A DNA stretch of 64,000 bases, taken from positions 1 through 64,000 of the forward strand of contig JAQTUV010000004.1 in the NCBI GenBank assembly GCA_028707175.1. The letters are read 5' to 3'. Positions 12,886 through 23,695 of this stretch are shown here, in pieces. The DNA is from Sideroxydans sp. (lineage in GTDB: Bacteria; Pseudomonadota; Gammaproteobacteria; Burkholderiales; Gallionellaceae). The notes beneath the pieces were generated by a model. That model saw nothing but the letters and a program-made list of their open reading frames with translations. It ran no database searches and was not told the DNA's origin. A program made the translations under genes and the position numbers. Positions within the stretch are counted from its first letter, which is position 1, and the number at the start of each line of letters is the position of its first letter.

Positions 12886-15800
12886 ATGCCCTTTTTCCAG
12901 CTTCGTTGGGGTTCAATTAAAACAAGAATTACTTTTCTAATCCTTGTCGTTCTGATTATTGGCTTCTGGTCTGCCGCTTTTTATGCCAGTCAGATTCTGC
13001 GTGCCAATATGGAGCAGATCTTCGGCAAGCAGTTGCTGTCCAACGCAACCTTTATGGCGGGCGAAATAGACGAGGAGCTACAAACACGTTTGTATTCGCT
13101 CAAGGCAGTTGCAGGAAAAATTAGCGCAGCAGAAGTACGGAACCGCTCGCAATCGCAAGCTAGATTAGAACAGCTCAGCATCCTCAAACATCAGTTTAAT
13201 GCGGGCCTCATTATCATCGACATGCACGGCAAGGTGATCGCCGATTCCGATCCCCTAGCGGGCCGATTAGATGAGAATCTTCTCGCGCAATCCCACATCA
13301 AGGCCGCCCTACAAGAAGGCAAATCGTCTATCGGCAAACCTCATCTTGCCGATTCGCAGACCTATCCAGAATTTGGTTTAGCCGCGCCTATTTTCGATTC
13401 GAAAGGCAAAGTGATCGGTGCGCTCGCAGGCATCATCGATCTATCACGCCCCAGCTTCTTTGATCAAGTCACTTCCCGCCTATATGGCGAAAGAGGTGAG
13501 TTTTTACTCATCGCCCCCCAGTACAATCTATTTGTAACAGCTACGGACAAAAGCCGCATCATGCATACGATTCCTGCGCCGGGTGTCAATCCACAACTGG
13601 ATCGCTTCAGACAAGGCATCGAGGAATACGGCACAGCAATCAGCTCCCGTGGCATAGAAGAAGTTTCGGCAGCTAAGTACATCCCTAGCGCGGGCTGGTT
13701 TGTCACTGCCGTGATTCCTACCTCCACCGCATACGCCCCCATCTACGATCTGCAACGCCGCATACTGCTGGTAGTGACCCTCATCACCTTACTCACCAGC
13801 GCACTCACATGGTGGATACTGAGACGGCAGCTTGCTCCGATGCTCAACACTGCAAAAAAACTCACTGAACTGAGCGACACCGGCAAACATCCACAATATC
13901 TAACGATCCAACGACAAGATGAAGTGGGTGAACTGGTCAATGGGTTTAATCGCCTACTCGGTAAATTGGAAAAGCAGAAAGTTGCACTACAAGAAAATGA
14001 GACGCGATATCGCACCCTTGTGGAATGGACACCCGAGGCCATTGCCGTACATCGCGCAGGCAAGTTCTTATACGTCAATCCTGCCGCTGTAAAAATGTTT
14101 GGCGCAAACTCTTCTGCCGAGCTGATTGGCCAGCCTGTACTGGATCGCATCCATCCTGACTATCACGCAGGCGTCATCGCACGCATCAAGAAAAACGCCC
14201 TCGATGGCCTACCAGCCCCCTTGGCCGAAGAGAAATTCATCAAGCTTGATGGCACCGTGATCGATGTCGAAATACAAGGCACCTCCATCATCTATAACGG
14301 TGAATCAGCGGTACAAGCCGCCATGCGTGATGTAACTGAAACACGTGCCACGCGCTATTCTCTGCAACAACAACTGGCATTCACACATGCGCAGAACCGA
14401 ATCGCCAAGATCATTATGGAAAGTGAAGGCACAGACCGAATATTGGAAGGGATGTTGCGAGAAGTGAGTGGCGTGCTTAAGACAGATCGTGCTTTGATCT
14501 ACGATATCGATTTCAACAAACGCCAAGTGATCGGACTATGCGAGTGGATCAATCCAAAATATCCCAATATCACGGCGACCCAAGGCACATATCCACTCGA
14601 AATATTCATTTCAGGCGCCACAGAAATCCGTGAAAAGCGAAGCTACGTCATCAGTCACAGTAACAACATCAACCCTTTACTTCTAGTTGATGGCTCTGCA
14701 CATATCTTGCACGAAAAGATGCAGATAAAAAGTGCTCTGTGGTATCCGGTGGCTTTCCGCAATGATGGCTACTATTTGCTGGTATTGAATCAAGTCATCG
14801 CCCATAAGGAATGGAGTAAAACAGAGATCGATTTCCTCGATGGGGCAAGCCAATTGGTCAGCGTGGCGATTGAAAAGATCAATCTACTGAGTGAGCGAAA
14901 ACTCGCCGAACATGACTTACGCATCGCCGCCACCGCCTTCGAAGCACAAGAAGGCATGCTGATCACCGATGCAAATCGCAAAATTTTGCGCGTCAATCGT
15001 GCCTTCACCCAGATCACAGGTTATGAAGCTCACGAAGTGATCGGACACAATCCACACATCCTGAGCTCAAAACAACAAAACGCCGCGTTTTATACCGCCA
15101 TGTGGGATTCGATCAATAACCGCGGCGGATGGGAAGGGGAAATCACAAATCGCCGTAAGAATGGAGAAGCCTATCCTGAATACCTCACCATCAGCACCGT
15201 GAAAGATACGGCTGGTGTGATCACCAACTATGTAGCCACCTTCAGCGACATCACGGCCAGCAAAATGGCTGCAAAAGAAATTGAGACGCTTGCCTTCTAT
15301 GACCCTCTGACGGGCCTACCTAACCGACGACTTTTAGTCGACCGTTTGCAGCGTGCACTTTCAGCAAGCGCGCGAAAGATACGCGAAGGTGCCTTGCTAT
15401 TCATCGATCTTGATCACTTCAAGAACATCAACGACACACTCGGCCATCAAGTAGGTGATCTATTGTTGCAACAAGTCGCACAACGACTGATTGCTTGCGT
15501 ACGTGATGACGACACGGTAGCCAGATTAGGCGGGGATGAATTCGTTGTGATGTTAGAAGATCTCAGCGCTAACAATGTTGAATCGGCCACGCAAGCCGAA
15601 GCTGTAGGAATAAAGATACTGACCCTACTGCGCCTCCCCTATTCAATCTTGGAACGTGAGCACCACATCACCCCAAGCATTGGCGTCACCCTCTTCAACA
15701 ACCATACGACCTCTAAAGACGATCTGCTGAAGCAAGCTGATATTGCAATGTATCAGGCCAAGAAAGCAGGCCGCAACGCGATACGATTTTTTGACCCGCA

Positions 15801-16602
15801 GATGCAGATCGCTATCGACACCCGCGCTACGCTAGAGAAAGAACTGCATCTCGCCATCAAGGATGGACAGTTCGAATTGCACTATCAGATCCAAATGGAC
15901 GAAATGGGAACACCCATAGGTGCAGAGGCCTTGATTCGCTGGCAACACCCTGAACGGGGCATGGTGCTGCCCAACGAATTCATTCCGCTGGCGGAAGAAA
16001 ACGGCCTCATCGTACCGATCGGACTTTGGGTGCTAGAGAGCGCCTGCGCTCAATTAAAAAAATGGGAAGCCTCTCCCATCACAAGCAAACTCGAACTGTC
16101 TATCAATGTCAGTGCTCAACAATTCACTCAAATTGATTACGAATCACAAGTTGCTGCCGCAATACAACGCCATGGCATCAATCCAAATCTACTCAAACAA
16201 GAACTAACCGAAAGCATGTTGGTTGATAACATTGAGAACACCATCCAAAAGATGATGACGCTAAAGGAGCAGGGCTTGCGCTTCACGTTGGATGACTTCG
16301 GGACAGGGTATTCGTCTTTGCAATATCTCAAACGACTTCCGCTCGATCAACTGAAGATCGACCAATCCTTCGTACAAGATTTGGAGATGGGTAGTAGCAA
16401 TCGGACCATCATACGCACCATCATTGCGATGGCGAGTAGTCTGAATTTATCTGTGATTGCAGAAGGCGTCGAGACTCAGCAACAAAGAGACCTGCTCATC
16501 AAGAAGGGGTGTCTCGCTTTCCAAGGCTATTTATTCGGCAGGCCCTGCCCAATCGAACAGTTCGAAGCGTCTCTTTCCCTATGTAAAAAGCGCACTGGAT
16601 AA
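12886..16602 (+). CDS. Membrane sensor with cache-type, HAMP, PAS, GAF, PAS, GGDEF and EAL domains
   Basis: This 1238-residue protein probably makes and/or breaks cyclic di-GMP. TM1 is at about residues 15-35 and TM2 at about 291-312, bracketing a periplasmic cache-like sensor. Then come a HAMP region (about 313-365), a PAS domain (about 372-485), a GAF-like segment (about 510-665), a second PAS (about 678-795) and GGDEF (residues 800-970). The active-site loop is intact (LGGDEF at 881-886). An EAL domain follows from about 985 with EALIRW at 1014-1019 and the DDFGTGYSSL loop. Both catalytic signatures look intact, so direction of activity cannot be read from sequence. It follows the flagellar block, consistent with motility control. 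Confidence 0.93.
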   Translation: MPFFQLRWGSIKTRITFLILVVLIIGFWSAAFYASQILRANMEQIFGKQLLSNATFMAGEIDEELQTRLYSLKAVAGKISAAEVRNRSQSQARLEQLSILKHQFNAGLIIIDMHGKVIADSDPLAGRLDENLLAQSHIKAALQEGKSSIGKPHLADSQTYPEFGLAAPIFDSKGKVIGALAGIIDLSRPSFFDQVTSRLYGERGEFLLIAPQYNLFVTATDKSRIMHTIPAPGVNPQLDRFRQGIEEYGTAISSRGIEEVSAAKYIPSAGWFVTAVIPTSTAYAPIYDLQRRILLVVTLITLLTSALTWWILRRQLAPMLNTAKKLTELSDTGKHPQYLTIQRQDEVGELVNGFNRLLGKLEKQKVALQENETRYRTLVEWTPEAIAVHRAGKFLYVNPAAVKMFGANSSAELIGQPVLDRIHPDYHAGVIARIKKNALDGLPAPLAEEKFIKLDGTVIDVEIQGTSIIYNGESAVQAAMRDVTETRATRYSLQQQLAFTHAQNRIAKIIMESEGTDRILEGMLREVSGVLKTDRALIYDIDFNKRQVIGLCEWINPKYPNITATQGTYPLEIFISGATEIREKRSYVISHSNNINPLLLVDGSAHILHEKMQIKSALWYPVAFRNDGYYLLVLNQVIAHKEWSKTEIDFLDGASQLVSVAIEKINLLSERKLAEHDLRIAATAFEAQEGMLITDANRKILRVNRAFTQITGYEAHEVIGHNPHILSSKQQNAAFYTAMWDSINNRGGWEGEITNRRKNGEAYPEYLTISTVKDTAGVITNYVATFSDITASKMAAKEIETLAFYDPLTGLPNRRLLVDRLQRALSASARKIREGALLFIDLDHFKNINDTLGHQVGDLLLQQVAQRLIACVRDDDTVARLGGDEFVVMLEDLSANNVESATQAEAVGIKILTLLRLPYSILEREHHITPSIGVTLFNNHTTSKDDLLKQADIAMYQAKKAGRNAIRFFDPQMQIAIDTRATLEKELHLAIKDGQFELHYQIQMDEMGTPIGAEALIRWQHPERGMVLPNEFIPLAEENGLIVPIGLWVLESACAQLKKWEASPITSKLELSINVSAQQFTQIDYESQVAAAIQRHGINPNLLKQELTESMLVDNIENTIQKMMTLKEQGLRFTLDDFGTGYSSLQYLKRLPLDQLKIDQSFVQDLEMGSSNRTIIRTIIAMASSLNLSVIAEGVETQQQRDLLIKKGCLAFQGYLFGRPCPIEQFEASLSLCKKRTG

Positions 16603-18931: not shown

Positions 18932-19058
18932 CTATCCCCCTCCAAATTAGATCAAACACAAATCAATGCTCGAGTTTAACAGCCCCCGTCACCAGCGCCT
19001 TTCAAGCTCTATGCTAATTGAAATATTGACACCCACCCGCCACTCTCATAGAGTCTGA

Positions 19059-19184
19059 CCCCACTTGCATATCCACTAGATGCACATCGAACCGCACGTA
19101 CGGCTAGAGTCGCTAATGGACACACCAGATCAGGGGGCTGGCGCAAATCGACGAAACGCTGCATCACCAAAGATGCGACCAACC
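19059..19184 (+). ncRNA. Conserved structured leader element, copy A (upstream of HDOD gene)
   Basis: This is the most diverged of three copies. It shares CCCACTTGCA-ATCC, GCACATC, CCGCACGTACGG, TAGAG and GGCTGGCGCA with copies B and C in the same order. The 5' part can pair as an outer stem (TCCA/TGGA) around a hairpin with loop CACGTA. The 3' part is a GGCTGG/CCAACC stem (one mismatch) around a small hairpin GCATC/GATGC. It ends about 24 bp before the HDOD start. It resembles a cis-acting RNA, but I cannot assign it to any family I know. Confidence 0.6.
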
Positions 19185-19207
19185 TTCAGAATAAGGACAA
19201 AGTGGAT

Positions 19208-20059
19208 ATGAACCGCGAGCTTTCTCACGAACAAATCGAGCAAGTCTTCAACAACATAGACATCCCCACCTGCCCTGCCATCGTCAGCATGGCAATGGCC
19301 GAAGCGCAAAAGGACGAGCCCGATATTAGAAAGCTCACCACAGCCATCGAAAAAGATGTCGGCATGTCTGCACTCACCATCAAGCTGGCTAATTCAGCCA
19401 TGTTCCGCACCAACCAACCGATCAGCCTTGTTTCAGTCGCACTTGGCCGACTGGGAATACGCAACGTAGTGTGCGTTGTCGTTGCCGCCGCATTGCGTAA
19501 CTGCATGACAGGCGTCGATGAAAAATGGCTAGAGACCTATTGGAACAACGCCTCACTCGTCGCCACTGCAGCCAGCATGATTGCCAGAAAACAACACGGC
19601 ATCGCCCCCGACACTGCCTACACATTCGCACTCTTCCACGACTCGGCTATCCCACTCTTACGCAAACGATTCGATAACTATTGTGAAGTCCTGACTAGCG
19701 CCGTCAACGACCAGCGCGAACTCATCGACGTAGAAGAAGAAAATTTCCCCTCCACGCATCCAGTCGTCGGCTCCTTGCTTTCACGCAATTGGGGACTTCC
19801 ATCCATCATCGGCCAAGCGATCCGCTTCCATCATGACAAGGACGTCTACAACTTACCCGAATCCACCCTCACAAGCGAAGCTGTCTCATTGATTGCCACA
19901 ATCCATATTGCAGAACGCCTGCTTTCCCTAAACACCGAAGACCTTGTCATAGAAGTGAGCAACTATCACTATAAACAAGCTCTGGACTACCTAAGCATCT
20001 CAGACGAAGACCTAGAAGAGATACGTGAATCGCTGGCCGATGAGGGCACGCATGTTTAA
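19208..20059 (+). CDS. HDOD domain signalling protein
   Basis: This is an HDOD protein of 283 residues, an HD-GYP-related domain without catalytic residues used in bacterial signalling scaffolds. Typical segments are LPTCP-type IDIPTCPAIVSMAMAEAQ, AIEKDVGMSALTIKLANSA, VSVALGRLGIRNV and the later ALFHDSAIPLL. A GTG at 19202 is also possible. The ATG at 19208 has AAGGA ten bases upstream and I prefer it. It lies directly downstream of leader element A and upstream of a chemoreceptor, suggesting a role in motility signalling. Confidence 0.9.
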   Translation: MNRELSHEQIEQVFNNIDIPTCPAIVSMAMAEAQKDEPDIRKLTTAIEKDVGMSALTIKLANSAMFRTNQPISLVSVALGRLGIRNVVCVVVAAALRNCMTGVDEKWLETYWNNASLVATAASMIARKQHGIAPDTAYTFALFHDSAIPLLRKRFDNYCEVLTSAVNDQRELIDVEEENFPSTHPVVGSLLSRNWGLPSIIGQAIRFHHDKDVYNLPESTLTSEAVSLIATIHIAERLLSLNTEDLVIEVSNYHYKQALDYLSISDEDLEEIRESLADEGTHV

Positions 20060-20118
20060 CGCATCCCCCAGCCATTAATTCCCCTATTGCATAAATGGCT
20101 TAACTTTAATAAAGTTCC

Positions 20119-20239
20119 ACCCACTTGCACATCCGCTCCACGCACATCTCACCGCACGTACGGTAAGAGGCTCACAGCGGGATTCCCAGGCTAGGAGCTG
20201 GCGCAAGATAAATTTCGGACAATCCGAAATATTGCCAGC
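20119..20239 (+). ncRNA. Conserved structured leader element, copy B (upstream of chemoreceptor gene)
   Basis: The 372-bp gap between the HDOD and chemoreceptor genes holds this element and a short ORF. It has an outer stem ATCCGC/GCGGGAT (one bulge) around the hairpin CTC-ACCG-CACGTA-CGGT-GAG. Next is GGAGCTGGCGCA, opening a GCTGGC/GCCAGC stem that encloses an 8-bp hairpin ATTTCGGA/TCCGAAAT. Copy C has a different but equally well-paired hairpin at that place (ATCCGTT/AACGGAT). Such compensating change argues for RNA structure. The element is followed by TTCAACAAAGGGGA, the ribosome site of the short ORF. Confidence 0.68.
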
Positions 20240-20265
20240 AACACCGTTCAACAAAGGGGAAGCGC

Positions 20266-20358
20266 ATGTTCATATTCAACACCACAACATCACCGCGCCA
20301 TCACGCTCCGTATTACGCGGCGCTATCCAACATTCCCTTACGACAGGCGAACGCCTAA
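20266..20358 (+). CDS. Possible 30-residue leader peptide after element B
   Basis: This short ORF begins at an ATG preceded by AAAGGGGA at good spacing and ends 73 bp before the chemoreceptor start. The peptide is MFIFNTTTSPRHHAPYYAAL followed by SNIPLRQANA. Its composition (NTT, SP, RH, A-Y, AL, L, A) loosely resembles the short ORF after element C. Translation is likely from the site alone. Whether the peptide matters or only ribosome transit matters cannot be seen here. Confidence 0.4.
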   Translation: MFIFNTTTSPRHHAPYYAALSNIPLRQANA

Positions 20359-20431
20359 ACAAAACTGGCTGAAGATTGATCTTCAACTAGCCTTATCGAT
20401 TTCCGTTCTCTTGAACTATTAGGAGTACATC

Positions 20432-22063
20432 ATGAAAAAAGCAGACATCAGCATTCGCAATGAATTACTACTTATCTCCAGCGCCGCCATGGTATTGATC
20501 TTGGCATCCGCGTTACTTGGCTTCTGGATACTGTGGGGCAGCATCCAACAATTCTCAACCAAGGTACAACCGGATTACGAAAACGAACGACAAGTCCAAC
20601 TCATCCAATCGAGCTTCAAAACACAGGTACAGGAATGGAAAAACGTCTTGCTACGTGGCACAGACCCAGCTGCCCTCGACAAATACTGGGCGCAATTCGT
20701 AGAGCAAGAAAACATGGTGCAAGCTAAAGCCATCGCATTAGAAAAACAGCTTGTCCCCAGCCCCAAGGCAAAAGAACTCATCACCAAATTCATCAGCGCC
20801 CATCAAGAAATGGGCAAAGCCTATCGCAAAGGATTGCAAGCCTATAAAGACAGCAGCTTTAACTCTCAGGTCGGCGACAAAGCCGTTAAAGGCATGGACC
20901 GTGCATCCACAGAACTATTGATCAAAGCCGGTGACGAGATCGTCAGCCTTGCTACACAATCTGCACAAGATGCCGTCGCTGATGCGCGTAAGGGCGTGAT
21001 CATTGGCATCACAGCCATCATCAGCGCGATTCTCATCTCGCTCTGGCTCATCTCTTGGATGGCACAGAGAAGCATCATCAACCCCGCCCTGCAGGTAGTG
21101 AAAGACATGCAGCGACTAGCCGAAGGAGACTTCTCCCAACCCATCGCTCAATCTAGCCAAGACGAAATCGGCCACATCGCGATGTCTGCCGAAAAGATCC
21201 GTGCCAACCTAGGGAAAATCATCGCGGAAGTAAACCATACCGTTTCAGCTGTATCCACGGCCGCCAACAGCCTCACAAACACTGCGACACAAGTTACGCA
21301 ATCATCACAACAACAAGCCGAGGCCACCGCAGCAGTCGCCTCAACGGTAGAAGAAATGTCGGTCAGCATCGCCTCTGTTGCCAACAATGCCGAAGAAGTA
21401 CGACAACTCTCCTCCACGGGACTCGAACGCACACAGCACAGCAACTCCAACGTCTCAAAATTGAATGATGAGATTCGCTTGGTCGAAAGCGCCGTGTATC
21501 AGATCGAGGGAGCTATTTTGAAATTCATCGACAGCTCCAACACCATCGCCAACATGACCAAACAAGTGAAAGACATTGCCGACCAAACCAACCTGCTCGC
21601 ACTCAACGCAGCCATCGAAGCCGCCCGTGCAGGCGAACAAGGTCGGGGCTTTGCAGTTGTTGCCGACGAAGTCCGCAAGCTCGCAGAAAAATCCGCAGAT
21701 GCAGCGAATGAAATCGAAAACGTCACCAAACATCTCAGTTCACAAACCGATGTCGTGCAGCAATCCATCAACAATGGGATCACCTCACTTCGTGCCAGCA
21801 GCGAAGCACTCAACACCGCCACCGCATCACTCGCCGAAACCAGCGAGTCAGTAGGCAATGCCGACCAAGGCATGGGTAGCATCTCCATCTCTGTGCAAGA
21901 GCAAAAGATCGCCAGCACCAACATAGCCCAACACGTCGAACGTATCGCACAAATGACCGAAACCAACCACGTCGAGATACACAACACCGTAAAACAAATT
22001 GCCCAACTTGAAGAACTCGCCATTGCCCTGCGTGCGATGACTGGCCAATTCAAAATCCAATAA
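20432..22063 (+). CDS. Methyl-accepting chemotaxis protein
   Basis: This is a 543-residue chemoreceptor. TM1 is at about residues 15-36 and TM2 at about 189-209. They enclose a four-helix-bundle-type periplasmic sensor with the segment [17 protein letters not shown] domain follows (about 210-262), then the methyl-accepting signalling domain with the conserved tip [20 protein letters not shown] and [19 protein letters not shown]. No C-terminal CheR-docking pentapeptide is present. The ATG has an AGGAG site. No FliA promoter was found upstream. Instead leader element B precedes it, so its control may be post-transcriptional. The ligand is unknown. Confidence 0.95.
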
Positions 22064-22071
22064 GAAAAACA

Positions 22072-22111
22072 CCTTGCTACATCCATCCAACACCTGATGA
22101 ATGTAGCAAGG
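22072..22111. other. Long inverted repeat downstream of the chemoreceptor gene
   Basis: CCTTGCTACAT and ATGTAGCAAGG form a perfect 11-bp stem, with an inner CATC/GATG pair, starting 8 bp after the chemoreceptor stop. Only the minus strand has a T-rich tail (GTGTTTTTC), so for the plus-strand gene it is at best a Rho-assisted end or a 3' stabilising hairpin. Confidence 0.45.
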
Positions 22112-22175
22112 CAGCACGCAGCACATTTACCCAAAGTTTTGTATTGACGCACCGAAAGACCTCACCTAAAGTTCA

Positions 22176-22307
22176 GCCCACTTGCACATCCGCCCCAGGC
22201 ACATCTCACCGCACGTACGGTAAGAGGCACACAGCGGAATCCCCAGATTAGGAGCTGGCGCAGGAAAATCCGTTAAAACGGATCGCAGCACCTGCAACAC
22301 AACCAGC
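22176..22307 (+). ncRNA. Conserved structured leader element, copy C (upstream of PhoD-like gene)
   Basis: Most of the 371-bp gap after the chemoreceptor gene is this element plus a short ORF. It is nearly the same as copy B from CCCACTTGCACATCC through AGGAGCTGGCGCA. It keeps the ATCCGC/GCGGAAT outer stem and the ACCG-CACGTA-CGGT hairpin. The 3' domain is a GAGCTGG/CCAGCTC stem enclosing CAGG/CCTG and a hairpin ATCCGTT/AACGGAT that differs in sequence from copy B. It is followed by CAACAGGGGGAG, the ribosome site of the next short ORF. Confidence 0.68.
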
Positions 22308-22323
22308 TCAACAGGGGGAGTCT

Positions 22324-22425
22324 TTGAATACTTCGACACATTCGCCATCCATGCGGCGATCCTTTGCCGCCACGCGCTACCGTCTAGCGTTGCGGCATCA
22401 AAGCCTGTCGGCTCATTCTGCATAG
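22324..22425 (+). CDS. Possible 33-residue leader peptide after element C
   Basis: A TTG codon preceded by AGGGGGAG opens a 33-residue ORF (MNTSTHSPSMRRSFAATRYR, then LALRHQSLSAHSA) ending only 9 bp before the PhoD-like start. That start has a weak ribosome site of its own (AGAAGA), so translation may be coupled. The arrangement of element, strong ribosome site, short ORF and main gene is the same as for copy B. Confidence 0.4.
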   Translation: MNTSTHSPSMRRSFAATRYRLALRHQSLSAHSA

Positions 22426-22434
22426 AAGAAACAC

Positions 22435-23415
22435 ATGGCAAAGACCAAGATCGTGTTCACCTCGTGCGTGCGCTACAACCAATACACACCGCAAGCGGAA
22501 TGGGATGAGATCGCAAAAGCCGACCCGGACTATCTGCTCCTGCTAGGCGACAACATCTACATGGATTACGGCATATTGCCCAGCATCCGCCCGCTCAAAT
22601 ATGAGTTCGGGAATATTCCGCGCTTCTACACCGTGAAATATTTCGCCAAGAAGATGCGCCAGAAATACGAAGAACAGTGGGCAGTGCCTCAGTTCAAAAG
22701 TCTCATCGCTAAGATGCGAACCAAGAACGGATTCTTTGGCACATGGGACGATCACGACTTCCTGTGGAACAACGCCTACGGCGGCAATGCAGATTCCTTC
22801 TGGGCAAAATTATTCAAGATGAAGGAGAAGCAATTGATCTCCCGCGACCTATTCCACGAATACATGGATTGCTCCACCAACCGTCCCGAAGTGTATTGCC
22901 ATGCGGACACCCCCTTCGCACGTATCATCATCTTGGACAATCGCTATCACGCCACCTCACCCAAAGCGGATGACGCAGTCTTGATGGGGCGCGAACAAAT
23001 GGAATTCTTAAAGGCCAAACTCGAACACGACCTTCCCTACACCCTCATCTGTGGCGGACTCACCCTGACAGAAGGCGGAGAGGATTGGTCGAAGTACACC
23101 ATCGAGTTCGATAGATTCACCCAACTCGTTGCGGGCAAAAAAGTCATCTACCTAGGCGGCGACATACACGACAACAAATTCAACAGCCCCGCCCCTCACA
23201 ACAAACCGCCATGCTACGAGATCGTCTCTTCAGGCCTATCCATCAACGATTGGGGCTTACCCCTTAAGCTCGACGACGTGCGCAACTGGGGAACATTGGA
23301 TATCGACGCCAACGAGATCATCGTCACCCTGCACGACATAGAAGGCACGACGCGATATCGCATCGACAGCAAAACGTGGGACCAGCAACGTCTTGGTCGA
23401 GTATTCAATCCGTGA
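22435..23415 (+). CDS. PhoD-like metallophosphatase, cytoplasmic
   Basis: This 326-residue protein has the PhoD/alkaline-phosphatase D-like metal motifs: GDNIYMDYG (about 38-46), GTWDDHDF (about 102-109) and a late GGDIHDNKF. These are the usual Asp/Asn/His ligands of calcineurin-type phosphoesterases. There is no signal peptide, unlike secreted PhoD, so it acts inside the cell on an unknown phosphoester. It follows leader element C and its short ORF. The KTSC gene follows 16 bp downstream. Confidence 0.85.
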   Translation: MAKTKIVFTSCVRYNQYTPQAEWDEIAKADPDYLLLLGDNIYMDYGILPSIRPLKYEFGNIPRFYTVKYFAKKMRQKYEEQWAVPQFKSLIAKMRTKNGFFGTWDDHDFLWNNAYGGNADSFWAKLFKMKEKQLISRDLFHEYMDCSTNRPEVYCHADTPFARIIILDNRYHATSPKADDAVLMGREQMEFLKAKLEHDLPYTLICGGLTLTEGGEDWSKYTIEFDRFTQLVAGKKVIYLGGDIHDNKFNSPAPHNKPPCYEIVSSGLSINDWGLPLKLDDVRNWGTLDIDANEIIVTLHDIEGTTRYRIDSKTWDQQRLGRVFNP

Positions 23416-23431
23416 TCAGGAGCACACCACA

Positions 23432-23695
23432 ATGGAAATGAAACCCATCAACTCCGGCAAGCTACGCGCCATCGGCTACGACGCGCGAGCGCGCATCCTG
23501 CAAGTCAAACTCGACACCGGTGACACACTGCAATACAGCGGCGTGGGCGAAGACCTGTGGCGCAGACTCAGCAGCTCCGGTGCGGCGTGGAGCTTCTATC
23601 GCGACAACATCGAAGAAGAATTCACAGCGAAGAAAGTTTCAGCGAGTGCACCTGCGGGGAAGAATCCGTTGGATGAGTTGTTTGGAAAAGCATAA
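23432..23695 (+). CDS. KTSC domain small protein
   Basis: This 87-residue protein is a KTSC-domain protein. Signature pieces are AIGYDARARILQVKL, GDTLQYSGVGEDLWRRL and SFYRDNI. The domain usually carries a Lys-Thr-Ser-Cys motif, but here the matching place near the N-terminus reads KPINSGKL. I chose the ATG at 23432, which has AGGAG at 23418-23422. The longer frame from 23393 overlaps the end of the phosphatase gene. The function of the domain is not established. It probably shares a transcript with the PhoD-like gene. Confidence 0.8.
   Translation: MEMKPINSGKLRAIGYDARARILQVKLDTGDTLQYSGVGEDLWRRLSSSGAAWSFYRDNIEEEFTAKKVSASAPAGKNPLDELFGKA

What the first reader, a model, noticed from the sequence alone, without database searches (positions are those of the whole stretch)
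19059..22307. Three copies of a structured leader element in front of three signalling genes
Copies at 19059-19184, 20119-20239 and 22176-22307 share, in order, CCCACTTGCA-ATCC, GCACATC, CCGCACGTACGG, AGAG and GCTGGCGCA. They precede an HDOD gene, a chemoreceptor and a PhoD-like phosphatase, all on the plus strand. Each can fold into a 5' domain (outer stem plus CACGTA-loop hairpin) and a 3' GCTGG/CCAGC stem around a hairpin. That last hairpin differs in sequence but stays paired (ATTTCGGA/TCCGAAAT in B, ATCCGTT/AACGGAT in C). Covariation and gene context suggest a cis-regulatory RNA or riboswitch for a signalling regulon. It does not match the cyclic-di-GMP-I consensus as I know it.
Basis: partly seen in the sequence, partly recalled or inferred. 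Interest (0 to 1): 0.88.

Follow-up and report, generated by a model that had tools for sequence, protein, structure and literature searches.

The report
Gene-control RNA of iron-oxidizing bacteria
Three neighbouring genes start with copies of a folded RNA leader, with its own promoter and ribosome site, that belongs to an apparently undescribed family found so far only in the iron-oxidizing Gallionellaceae; it probably controls whether these genes are translated, but what it senses is unknown.

Summary
In detail: window copies at about 19061-19201, 20121-20265 and 22178-22323 precede HDOD, chemoreceptor and PhoD-like genes. None reaches any Rfam 15 family. A covariance model finds the element in 63 of 120 sampled genomes of the same family (Gallionellaceae) and in no sampled genome outside it. 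The typical copy is a module: a near-consensus promoter (132 of 138 copies tested), an RNA starting near CACUUGCA, a 5' domain whose two stems covary, a conserved GCUGGCGCAAG block, a Shine-Dalgarno sequence and a closely spaced start codon. About half of the copies with a recognised start lead straight into the gene; the others open a short uORF that usually ends near the next gene's start. Neighbouring copies lie on one strand in 36 of 36 cases. Downstream genes are varied: GGDEF signalling genes are enriched (17 of 130, about 1.9 expected), but methyltransferases, lipases and defence-like genes also occur. Best reading: a new cis-regulatory leader acting on translation initiation. A helix hiding the Shine-Dalgarno sequence is plausible but only moderately supported. 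No ligand is shown, so 'riboswitch' remains a hypothesis. Mobile-repeat, integron-site and c-di-GMP-I explanations were tested and are disfavoured.

The parts
19026..19054 (+). Promoter of copy A: TTGACA (19026-19031), 17-nt spacer, TAGAGT (19049-19054)
   Evidence: consensus promoter
19061..19201 (+). Leader RNA copy A (before the HDOD gene); 5' domain kept (CTTGCA 19064-19069, CCGCACGTACGG 19092-19103), 3' half degenerate; SD AAGGA at 19193-19197 (by eye; this copy is one of the 24 of 150 in which the script found no SD and start)
   Evidence: R2 hit 19061-19229, 65.1 bits, E 2.6e-15
19202..20059 (+). HDOD-domain gene (GTG at 19202 or ATG at 19208)
20087..20115 (+). Candidate promoter of copy B: TTGCAT (20087-20092, only 3 of 6 like TTGACA, below the threshold), 17-nt spacer, TAAAGT (20110-20115)
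20121..20265 (+). Leader RNA copy B: pseudoknot strands CTTGC 20124-20128 and GCAAG 20203-20207 (candidate); P1 20132-20137/20176-20181; P2 20142-20154/20161-20171; anti-SD TTCCC 20183-20187 (candidate); P3 20197-20202/20234-20239; inner hairpin 20212-20219/20223-20230; SD AAGGGG 20254-20259
   Evidence: R2 hit 135.2 bits, E 4.3e-33; pair counts. In B's own predicted ensemble P2 and P3 form (0.83, 0.97) but P1 and the SD helix do not (0.03, 0.01)
20266..20358 (+). Short uORF (30 codons) opened by the leader's SD; the chemoreceptor gene starts 73 nt after its stop, behind its own AGGAG
   Evidence: no codon-level constraint on such uORFs as a group
20432..22063 (+). Chemoreceptor gene (HAMP + MCPsignal)
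22144..22172 (+). Promoter of copy C: TTGACG (22144-22149), 17-nt spacer, TAAAGT (22167-22172)
22178..22323 (+). Leader RNA copy C: CTTGCA 22181-22186, CCGCACGTACGG 22209-22220, anti-SD TCCCC 22240-22244, GCTGGCGCA 22254-22262, SD AGGGGG 22313-22318; the minimum-energy fold pairs UCCCC with the SD
   Evidence: R2 hit 121.4 bits, E 1.3e-29; fold
22324..22425 (+). Short uORF (33 codons, TTG start) opened by the leader's SD; PhoD-like gene starts 9 nt after its stop
   Evidence: the L046 homologue also has a 33-codon uORF with the same 9-nt gap
22435..23415 (+). PhoD-like phosphatase gene
   Evidence: Pfam on homologue L046

Best explanation
The repeat is a portable expression module: a sigma-70-type promoter followed at a near-fixed distance by a folded 5' leader RNA of about 145 nt that ends in a Shine-Dalgarno (SD) sequence and a start codon. 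It acts in cis on translation initiation of the gene behind it, directly or through a short uORF that ends near that gene's start. Well supported here by sequence: promoter, RNA fold of the 5' domain, SD and start spacing, position before genes, family-wide occurrence. Inferred: in one state the C-rich linker (UCCCC, often followed by GAACA) pairs with the downstream UGUUC and the SD (GGGGA) and hides it; folding of the 5' domain, perhaps through a CUUGC/GCAAG pseudoknot with the RNA's 5' end, would release or stabilise this state in response to a signal. The signal (small molecule, protein or other) is unknown.
For: Promoter: 132 of 138 copies tested score at least 9 of 11 for TTGACA-N16-18-TANAGT, 125 with exact TTGACA; 0 of 138 shuffled controls did (one mononucleotide shuffle each). 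The -10 ends 7-9 nt before CTTGC in all 132, so the RNA should begin at about CACUUGC. Translation: a start codon behind an SD was found in 126 of 150 copies; 61 open an ORF of at least 70 aa and 65 a shorter one (whose scoring favours spacings near 6). Without that preference, of 99 copies with exactly one GGGGA in the zone, the first start codon is 5 nt after it in 57 and 4 nt in 22, and absent in 2; random positions give 3.9% at 5 nt and 52% without any. Coupling: 46 of 65 short uORFs have the next ORF's start between -30 and +15 nt of the stop, 13 as a 4-nt overlap; stops in the other two frames give 32 and 6 of 104. Structure: on a MAFFT alignment made without structure (95 rows), 38 pairs are 88.7% paired (shuffles 84.5%, slid versions 37-44%) and 181 cells change on both sides (65 in shuffles, 0 of 500 as high). 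SD helix plus GAACA/UGUUC: 88.4% paired against 87.3% shuffled (3 of 500 as high) and 35-69% slid; 13 double-change cells against 5.5 (1 of 500). Distribution: 63 of 120 family genomes. Copies resemble array neighbours hardly more than copies elsewhere (core identity 0.74, 0.73, 0.72), so the family looks old and constrained rather than freshly copied as a whole.
Against: No expression, probing or ligand data. RNAalifold on the same alignment predicted only 3 pairs, so the consensus fold was assembled by hand from local motifs and then counted. The SD helix: partners slid by +2 or +3 columns give 18 and 15 double-change cells, more than the 13 observed, so its covariation is weak. P3 likewise: 88.1% paired against 87.5%, 5 double changes against 1.4 shuffled but 3-9 in slid versions. 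The pseudoknot hardly varies: 96.6% paired, no double change, and the folding program cannot model it. In single-sequence ensembles P1 exceeds 0.5 in 58 of 94, P2 in 78 of 95, P3 in 41 of 95 and the SD helix in 45 of 95 leaders; SD pairing of any kind (0.85) is little above shuffled controls (0.78). In window copy B neither P1 nor the SD helix is predicted and its -35 is poor. Copy A has lost most of the 3' half, including the SD helix. 24 of 150 copies had no SD and start recognised by the script, copy A among them. The targets share no single pathway.
Confidence: 0.74

Rival explanations
1. A small-molecule riboswitch: the conserved 5' domain (P1, P2 with bulged As and a CANGNA loop, CUUGC/GCAAG pseudoknot) is an aptamer for one intracellular signal, perhaps a nucleotide second messenger, and the 3' half is the expression platform. 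This is the narrower form of the best explanation.
For: Conserved unpaired positions between covarying stems, an SD and a candidate anti-SD strand, several copies per genome before unlinked genes. GGDEF genes enriched. c-di-GMP-I riboswitches lie about 2.4 kb from arrays in three related genomes.
Against: No metabolic pathway unites the targets. Of 39 proteins called behind 40 c-di-GMP-I sites, 4 match leader targets, two through GGDEF/PAS domains and two through response-regulator-like similarity, so there is no sign that the two RNAs replace each other.
Confidence: 0.35
2. A leader recognised by a trans-acting RNA-binding protein or sRNA of this family; the fold presents a binding site near the ribosome site.
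For: Restriction to one bacterial family with varied targets suits a lineage-specific regulator. Nearly invariant loop letters (CA.G.A) in a hairpin.
Against: No candidate protein or sRNA identified or searched for. A CsrA-type GGA pair (motif recalled) is not conserved: a number of copies read AGTGAGGC in the linker (by eye).
Confidence: 0.3
3. Mobile DNA repeat (MITE-like or REP-like) that happens to carry a promoter.
For: Multi-copy, clustered (36 neighbouring pairs within 12 kb against 2.5 expected). Some recent copying does occur: 2 of 306 same-genome pairs are over 95% identical in the core, one of them, in the window's own genome (C10 and C8), identical there and similar past the start codon. 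Several copies carry a further hairpin repeat.
Against: Reads towards the next gene with a spaced SD and start in 126 of 150 copies. Covariation specific to RNA pairing in P1 and P2. Mean identity is no higher within genomes. No hit with copy B in phage or plasmid records at blastn sensitivity, nor of one exact pattern in viral contigs. Homologous genes keep the leader in different species.
Confidence: 0.06
4. Integron recombination site (attC) of a chromosomal cassette array: same orientation, varied accessory genes.
For: 36 of 36 neighbouring pairs share a strand; accessory and defence-like genes behind the element; 15 of 34 genus genomes hold an integron integrase over the family cut-off.
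Against: By reading the tables side by side, none of those 15 integrases lies within 12 kb of a listed copy on the same contig (one short fragment does, G005:C14); the tables are capped and assemblies are broken, so linkage could be missed. The element sits 5' of genes with promoter and SD and has a two-domain fold, not one long imperfect hairpin.
Confidence: 0.03

Closest known systems
c-di-GMP-I riboswitch (GEMM-I, RF01051)
   Same: Multi-copy 5' leader in the same genomes (28 of 34), some before signalling and motility genes.
   Different: No match of the leader at E up to 10; different sequence and fold, and mostly different targets in the 40 of 68 sites examined.
Orphan riboswitch candidates from comparative-genomic surveys (for example PMC2864571, seen in a listing; PMC11109978 and PMC8632094, term search)
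   Same: Kind of object: conserved structured leader of unknown ligand in a bacterial lineage.
   Different: Not in Rfam 15 as searched. PMC11109978 and PMC8632094 do not mention Gallionella or Sideroxydans in the main text. Here the promoter is part of the conserved unit.
Translational attenuators with a leader ORF (general class; recalled)
   Same: Short uORF ending near the downstream gene's start in many copies.
   Different: uORF peptides show no codon-level constraint; about half of the copies with a recognised start have no uORF.
Integron cassette arrays (attC)
   Same: Same-strand arrays of varied accessory genes.
   Different: No linked integrase seen; element is a promoter plus leader 5' of genes.

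Membership tests
Any Rfam 15 family | Covariance-model score at or above gathering cut-off | tested here: not met
   Window: only a tRNA passes. Element region at E up to 10: 7 matches of 15-19 bits, all below their cut-offs of 33-76. 20 loci with other copies at E up to 0.5: 3 miRNA-family matches, all below cut-off, all on L016. Copy in L059 at E up to 10: none.
c-di-GMP-I riboswitch RF01051 | Match to the RF01051 model | tested here: not met
   No match, although the model rings elsewhere in these genomes (28 of 34)
Cis-regulatory leader RNA | Directly 5' of a coding sequence, same strand, with linked SD and start | tested here: met
   126 of 150 copies with SD and start; start 4-5 nt after GGGGA in 79 of 99, control 3.9% at 5 nt
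Cis-regulatory leader RNA | Own transcription start upstream of the structure | tested here: met
   By sequence only: promoter-like pair in 132 of 138 copies tested, 0 of 138 shuffled controls; window copy B fails the threshold
Cis-regulatory leader RNA | Conserved secondary structure with compensatory changes | tested here: met
   P1 and P2: 15 of 17 pairs have changes on both sides; whole structure 181 double-change cells against 65 shuffled
Riboswitch | Direct binding of a ligand that changes expression | not testable with these tools
   needs probing and reporter assays
Riboswitch | Mutually exclusive aptamer and expression-platform structures | tested here: inconclusive
   SD helix moderately supported, with slid controls that match its double changes; above 0.5 in 45 of 95 ensembles
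Integron attC site | Linked integron integrase | tested here: not met
   15 integrases over cut-off in 34 genomes, none within 12 kb of a listed copy (searches compared by eye)
Mobile DNA repeat | Recent near-identical copies within genomes | tested here: inconclusive
   2 of 306 same-genome pairs over 95% identical in the core, 10 over 90%; mean 0.73 within and 0.72 between genomes
Mobile DNA repeat | Target-site duplications or empty sites | not tested
   no call made

The most novel reading that the evidence does not exclude
A Gallionellaceae-specific signal-responsive RNA switch, sensing an intracellular signal (possibly a nucleotide second messenger), that together with a fixed promoter forms a transferable control module placed before cyclic-di-GMP enzymes, chemotaxis genes and defence-like genes alike, giving one RNA-based regulon shared by surface behaviour and phage defence.
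Probability: 0.22. Interest if true: 0.88.

Novelty: new member of a known kind. Interest (0 to 1): 0.66.

Why it matters
It is a sizeable RNA regulon (1-12 copies in the carrier genomes listed) in bacteria that drive iron oxidation, absent from the RNA family library searched, and it includes cyclic-di-GMP enzymes. If the switch mechanism holds, it offers a direct route to an unknown signal controlling signalling, chemotaxis and defence-like genes in a group that is hard to grow and genetically little explored (recalled). The promoter-plus-leader unit is also a ready reporter for that signal.

Tried and rejected
Rfam at gathering and at permissive thresholds: nothing. DNA similarity of copy B in plasmid and phage records: no match; one exact pattern in viral contigs: 0. 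RNAalifold consensus on A2: only 3 pairs; I think because the 3' half varies in length. I replaced it by named pairs counted with controls. Integron idea: disfavoured. c-di-GMP riboswitch replacement idea: 39 proteins called behind 40 of the 68 listed RF01051 sites were compared with leader targets; only four matched, by GGDEF/PAS or response-regulator similarity, so no support. uORF as a selected peptide: no support; 39 synonymous and 86 non-synonymous differences against 31 and 94 expected, codon positions flat at 41, 40, 44 (15 pairs). Recent local duplication of leaders within arrays: no general sign, though one identical pair exists in the own genome at distant places. A CsrA site pair: inspected by eye in A2 only, not conserved. 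In copy A a 10-bp helix between the leader's 5' end and the start codon is not kept in its homologue L141, so it was not used.

Rows dropped: nhmmer gave 164 hits, 150 kept as separate elements with enough of the model. Promoters could be tested in 138 of 150. A2 holds 95 rows: of 164 hits, 110 were nearly full length and without the large insert, 104 non-redundant; window copy A was added and 10 were left out by hand to shorten the call. One search capped its list; 142 places were carried into, plus 3 window copies. Downstream genes were called by a simple script; of 78 target clusters, 60 proteins were sent to Pfam and the rest, many of them doubtful ORFs, were not. GGDEF counts come from phmmer with two domain queries. 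The gene density behind the expected value (3049 genes in 3.00 Mb) is from the start of the abstract of PMC3770913 seen in the listing. Homologous genes and arrays of related species are counted as separate cases, so those counts are not independent.

Full report
What is there. The three copies are real. A sequence-only model of them finds six copies in the window's own genome, the three seeds and three more; a structured model adds a weak seventh at C8:106420-106614 (E 1.9e-4). Read by eye, that one also has TTGACA, TAGAGT, a GGCTGACGC block and AGGGGA before a TTG. No copy tested reaches a known RNA family.

Where it occurs. That model (R2, 95 rows) hits 63 of 120 genomes of the family. Among 274 genomes drawn from the class, 300 from the order and 398 from the phylum, the 1, 8 and 2 genomes with a hit at E 0.001 or better all belong to the same family (the draws overlap and use stricter filters that can lose weak matches). 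In the 84,980 named species genomes an exact pattern finds 41 stretches. Titles name Gallionella, Sideroxydans, Sideroxyarcus, Ferrigenium, Gallionellales, Gallionellaceae or Nitrosomonadales, except six labelled only Gammaproteobacteria or Proteobacteria. The window is therefore from a Sideroxydans-like member of Gallionellaceae (inference).

Anatomy. From 150 copies the unit reads: TTGACA, 17-18 nt, TA(A/C/G)AGT, 7-9 nt, CTTGCA. Then P1 (CCGC/GCGG) encloses P2 (GCACAUC-GCACCG-CANGNA-CGGUGC-GAGGC, with two bulged As). Next come a linker UCCCC-A-GAACAGG, the block GGCUGGCGCAAG, a variable hairpin, GCCAGC, CUUGUUC, AAAGGGGA and a start codon. Some copies carry an extra hairpin of about 60 nt between linker and GGCTGG.

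Structure evidence. On alignment A2 (MAFFT, no structure used) 38 named pairs give 88.7% standard pairs and 181 double-change cells; shuffles give 84.5% and 65, and partners slid by 1-3 columns give 37-44% paired. P1 column pair 14-65 is CG in 53 and UA in 33 rows; P2 pair 35-49 is AU in 32 and GC in 26. The tool warns that related rows can exceed shuffles without structure; the number of pairs with double changes (25 against 16.1, 0 of 500) is the safer measure. The helix between linker and SD region is weaker: 13 double changes against 5.5 in shuffles, but 18 and 15 when slid by +2 and +3. P3 is weaker still. The CUUGC/GCAAG pseudoknot is nearly invariant and so untested by covariation. GCAAG is kept although displaced by one base in L119 and L138, which favours a function for it.

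Link to genes. 126 of 150 copies have an SD with a start codon. Without any preference for spacing, of 99 copies with exactly one GGGGA in the zone, 57 have the first start codon 5 nt after it and 22 at 4 nt; random positions show 3.9% at 5 nt. 61 of the 126 open an ORF of at least 70 aa. 65 open a shorter one; in 46 of 65 the next ORF starts within -30 to +15 nt of the uORF stop, in 13 as a 4-nt overlap, against 32 and 6 of 104 for stops in the other two frames. The uORF peptides show no codon-level constraint, so they probably serve as relays rather than products (inference).

What it controls. The 147 downstream proteins fall into 78 clusters. Sixty were checked in Pfam. Found: GGDEF, EAL, PAS, CHASE, MASE, HDOD, chemoreceptor, histidine kinase and receiver domains; methyltransferase (25 copies, 24 genomes); lipase and phospholipase A1; PhoD; transglutaminase; cysteine protease; OLD-type ATPases, SIR2-STAND, Shedu, caspase, Nmad2, ORF6N; and many unknowns. 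GGDEF proteins are 17 of 130 in the genus against about 1.9 expected, and 6 of 78 clusters (binomial P 0.001, treating clusters as independent); 13 of the 17 come from two clusters. Arrays: 36 neighbouring pairs within 12 kb against 2.5 expected, all 36 on the same strand (related species share some arrays).

How it most likely works. Shown by sequence: promoter, RNA start region, 5' domain fold, SD and start. Inferred: the linker pairs with the SD in a resting state, as in the minimum-energy fold of copy C, and the 5' domain with its possible pseudoknot responds to a signal and changes access to the SD. Against this, the SD helix dominates in only 45 of 95 predicted ensembles, SD pairing is only slightly above shuffled controls, and copy B's own ensemble shows neither P1 nor the SD helix. 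Copy A lacks the 3' half and may be decaying or differently controlled.

Is it a mobile repeat? Mean core identity is the same within and between genomes (0.73 and 0.72), but 2 of 306 same-genome pairs exceed 95%, and the copies at C10 and C8 of the own genome are identical over the core and similar past the start codon. So single copies are duplicated now and then, which could be how new genes acquire the leader (inference).

Compared with what is known. The leader is not c-di-GMP-I, which exists separately in 28 of 34 genus genomes, mostly before other genes in the 40 of 68 sites examined. Literature: 'Gallionella' with 'riboswitch' gave one paper, on c-di-GMP evolution (listing only). 'Gallionellaceae' with 'untranslated region' gave none. 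Broader term searches gave only general surveys and reviews in the rows shown (listings only). Two large survey papers do not mention Gallionella or Sideroxydans in the main text (term search only). The library holds open-licence papers only and no supplements were read, so a description elsewhere cannot be excluded.

Verdict. A real and apparently undescribed family of cis-regulatory leader RNA with an attached promoter. By kind it is one more orphan leader class; its size, mixed target set and strict array orientation make it worth bench work.

Noticed in passing
L123, L107, L077, L150, L093, L108, L087, L132, L148 (leader regions): A hairpin repeat of about 60 nt (GCGG..GGGTGGC..GCCACC..ACCCGC type) sits inside several leaders just after the CCCCAGA linker, or replaces the promoter and 5' end in others; a separate small repeat of these genomes (by eye).
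   Followed up: no
G021:C75:11049, G009:C18:146188, G006:C1:6164 (L256-L258): Known c-di-GMP-I riboswitches lie about 2.4 kb from leader arrays, on the opposite strand, before a gene whose start reads like MotB (by eye).
   Followed up: partly
G000:C10:116174 and G000:C8:487179 (L044, L045): Two leaders of the own genome are identical over the core and similar into the first codons, before unrelated genes; a recent duplication of the leader.
   Followed up: partly
window 12886-16602: A 1238-aa sensor with GGDEF and EAL motifs (by eye) lies upstream of the cluster; the model finds no leader in front of it.
   Followed up: partly
window 23393-23695; L108, L103, L094, L062: A gene like KTSC-domain L108 (by eye) follows PhoD in the window without its own leader, while similar genes in other genomes stand behind a leader.
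   Followed up: partly
G000:C8:330086-331027 and 14 other genus genomes: Integron integrases (TIGR02249 over cut-off), not linked to the leaders.
   Followed up: partly
window 19068-19077 with 19201-19210: In copy A the leader's 5' end can pair over 10 bp with the start-codon region of the HDOD gene; not kept in the L141 homologue.
   Followed up: yes
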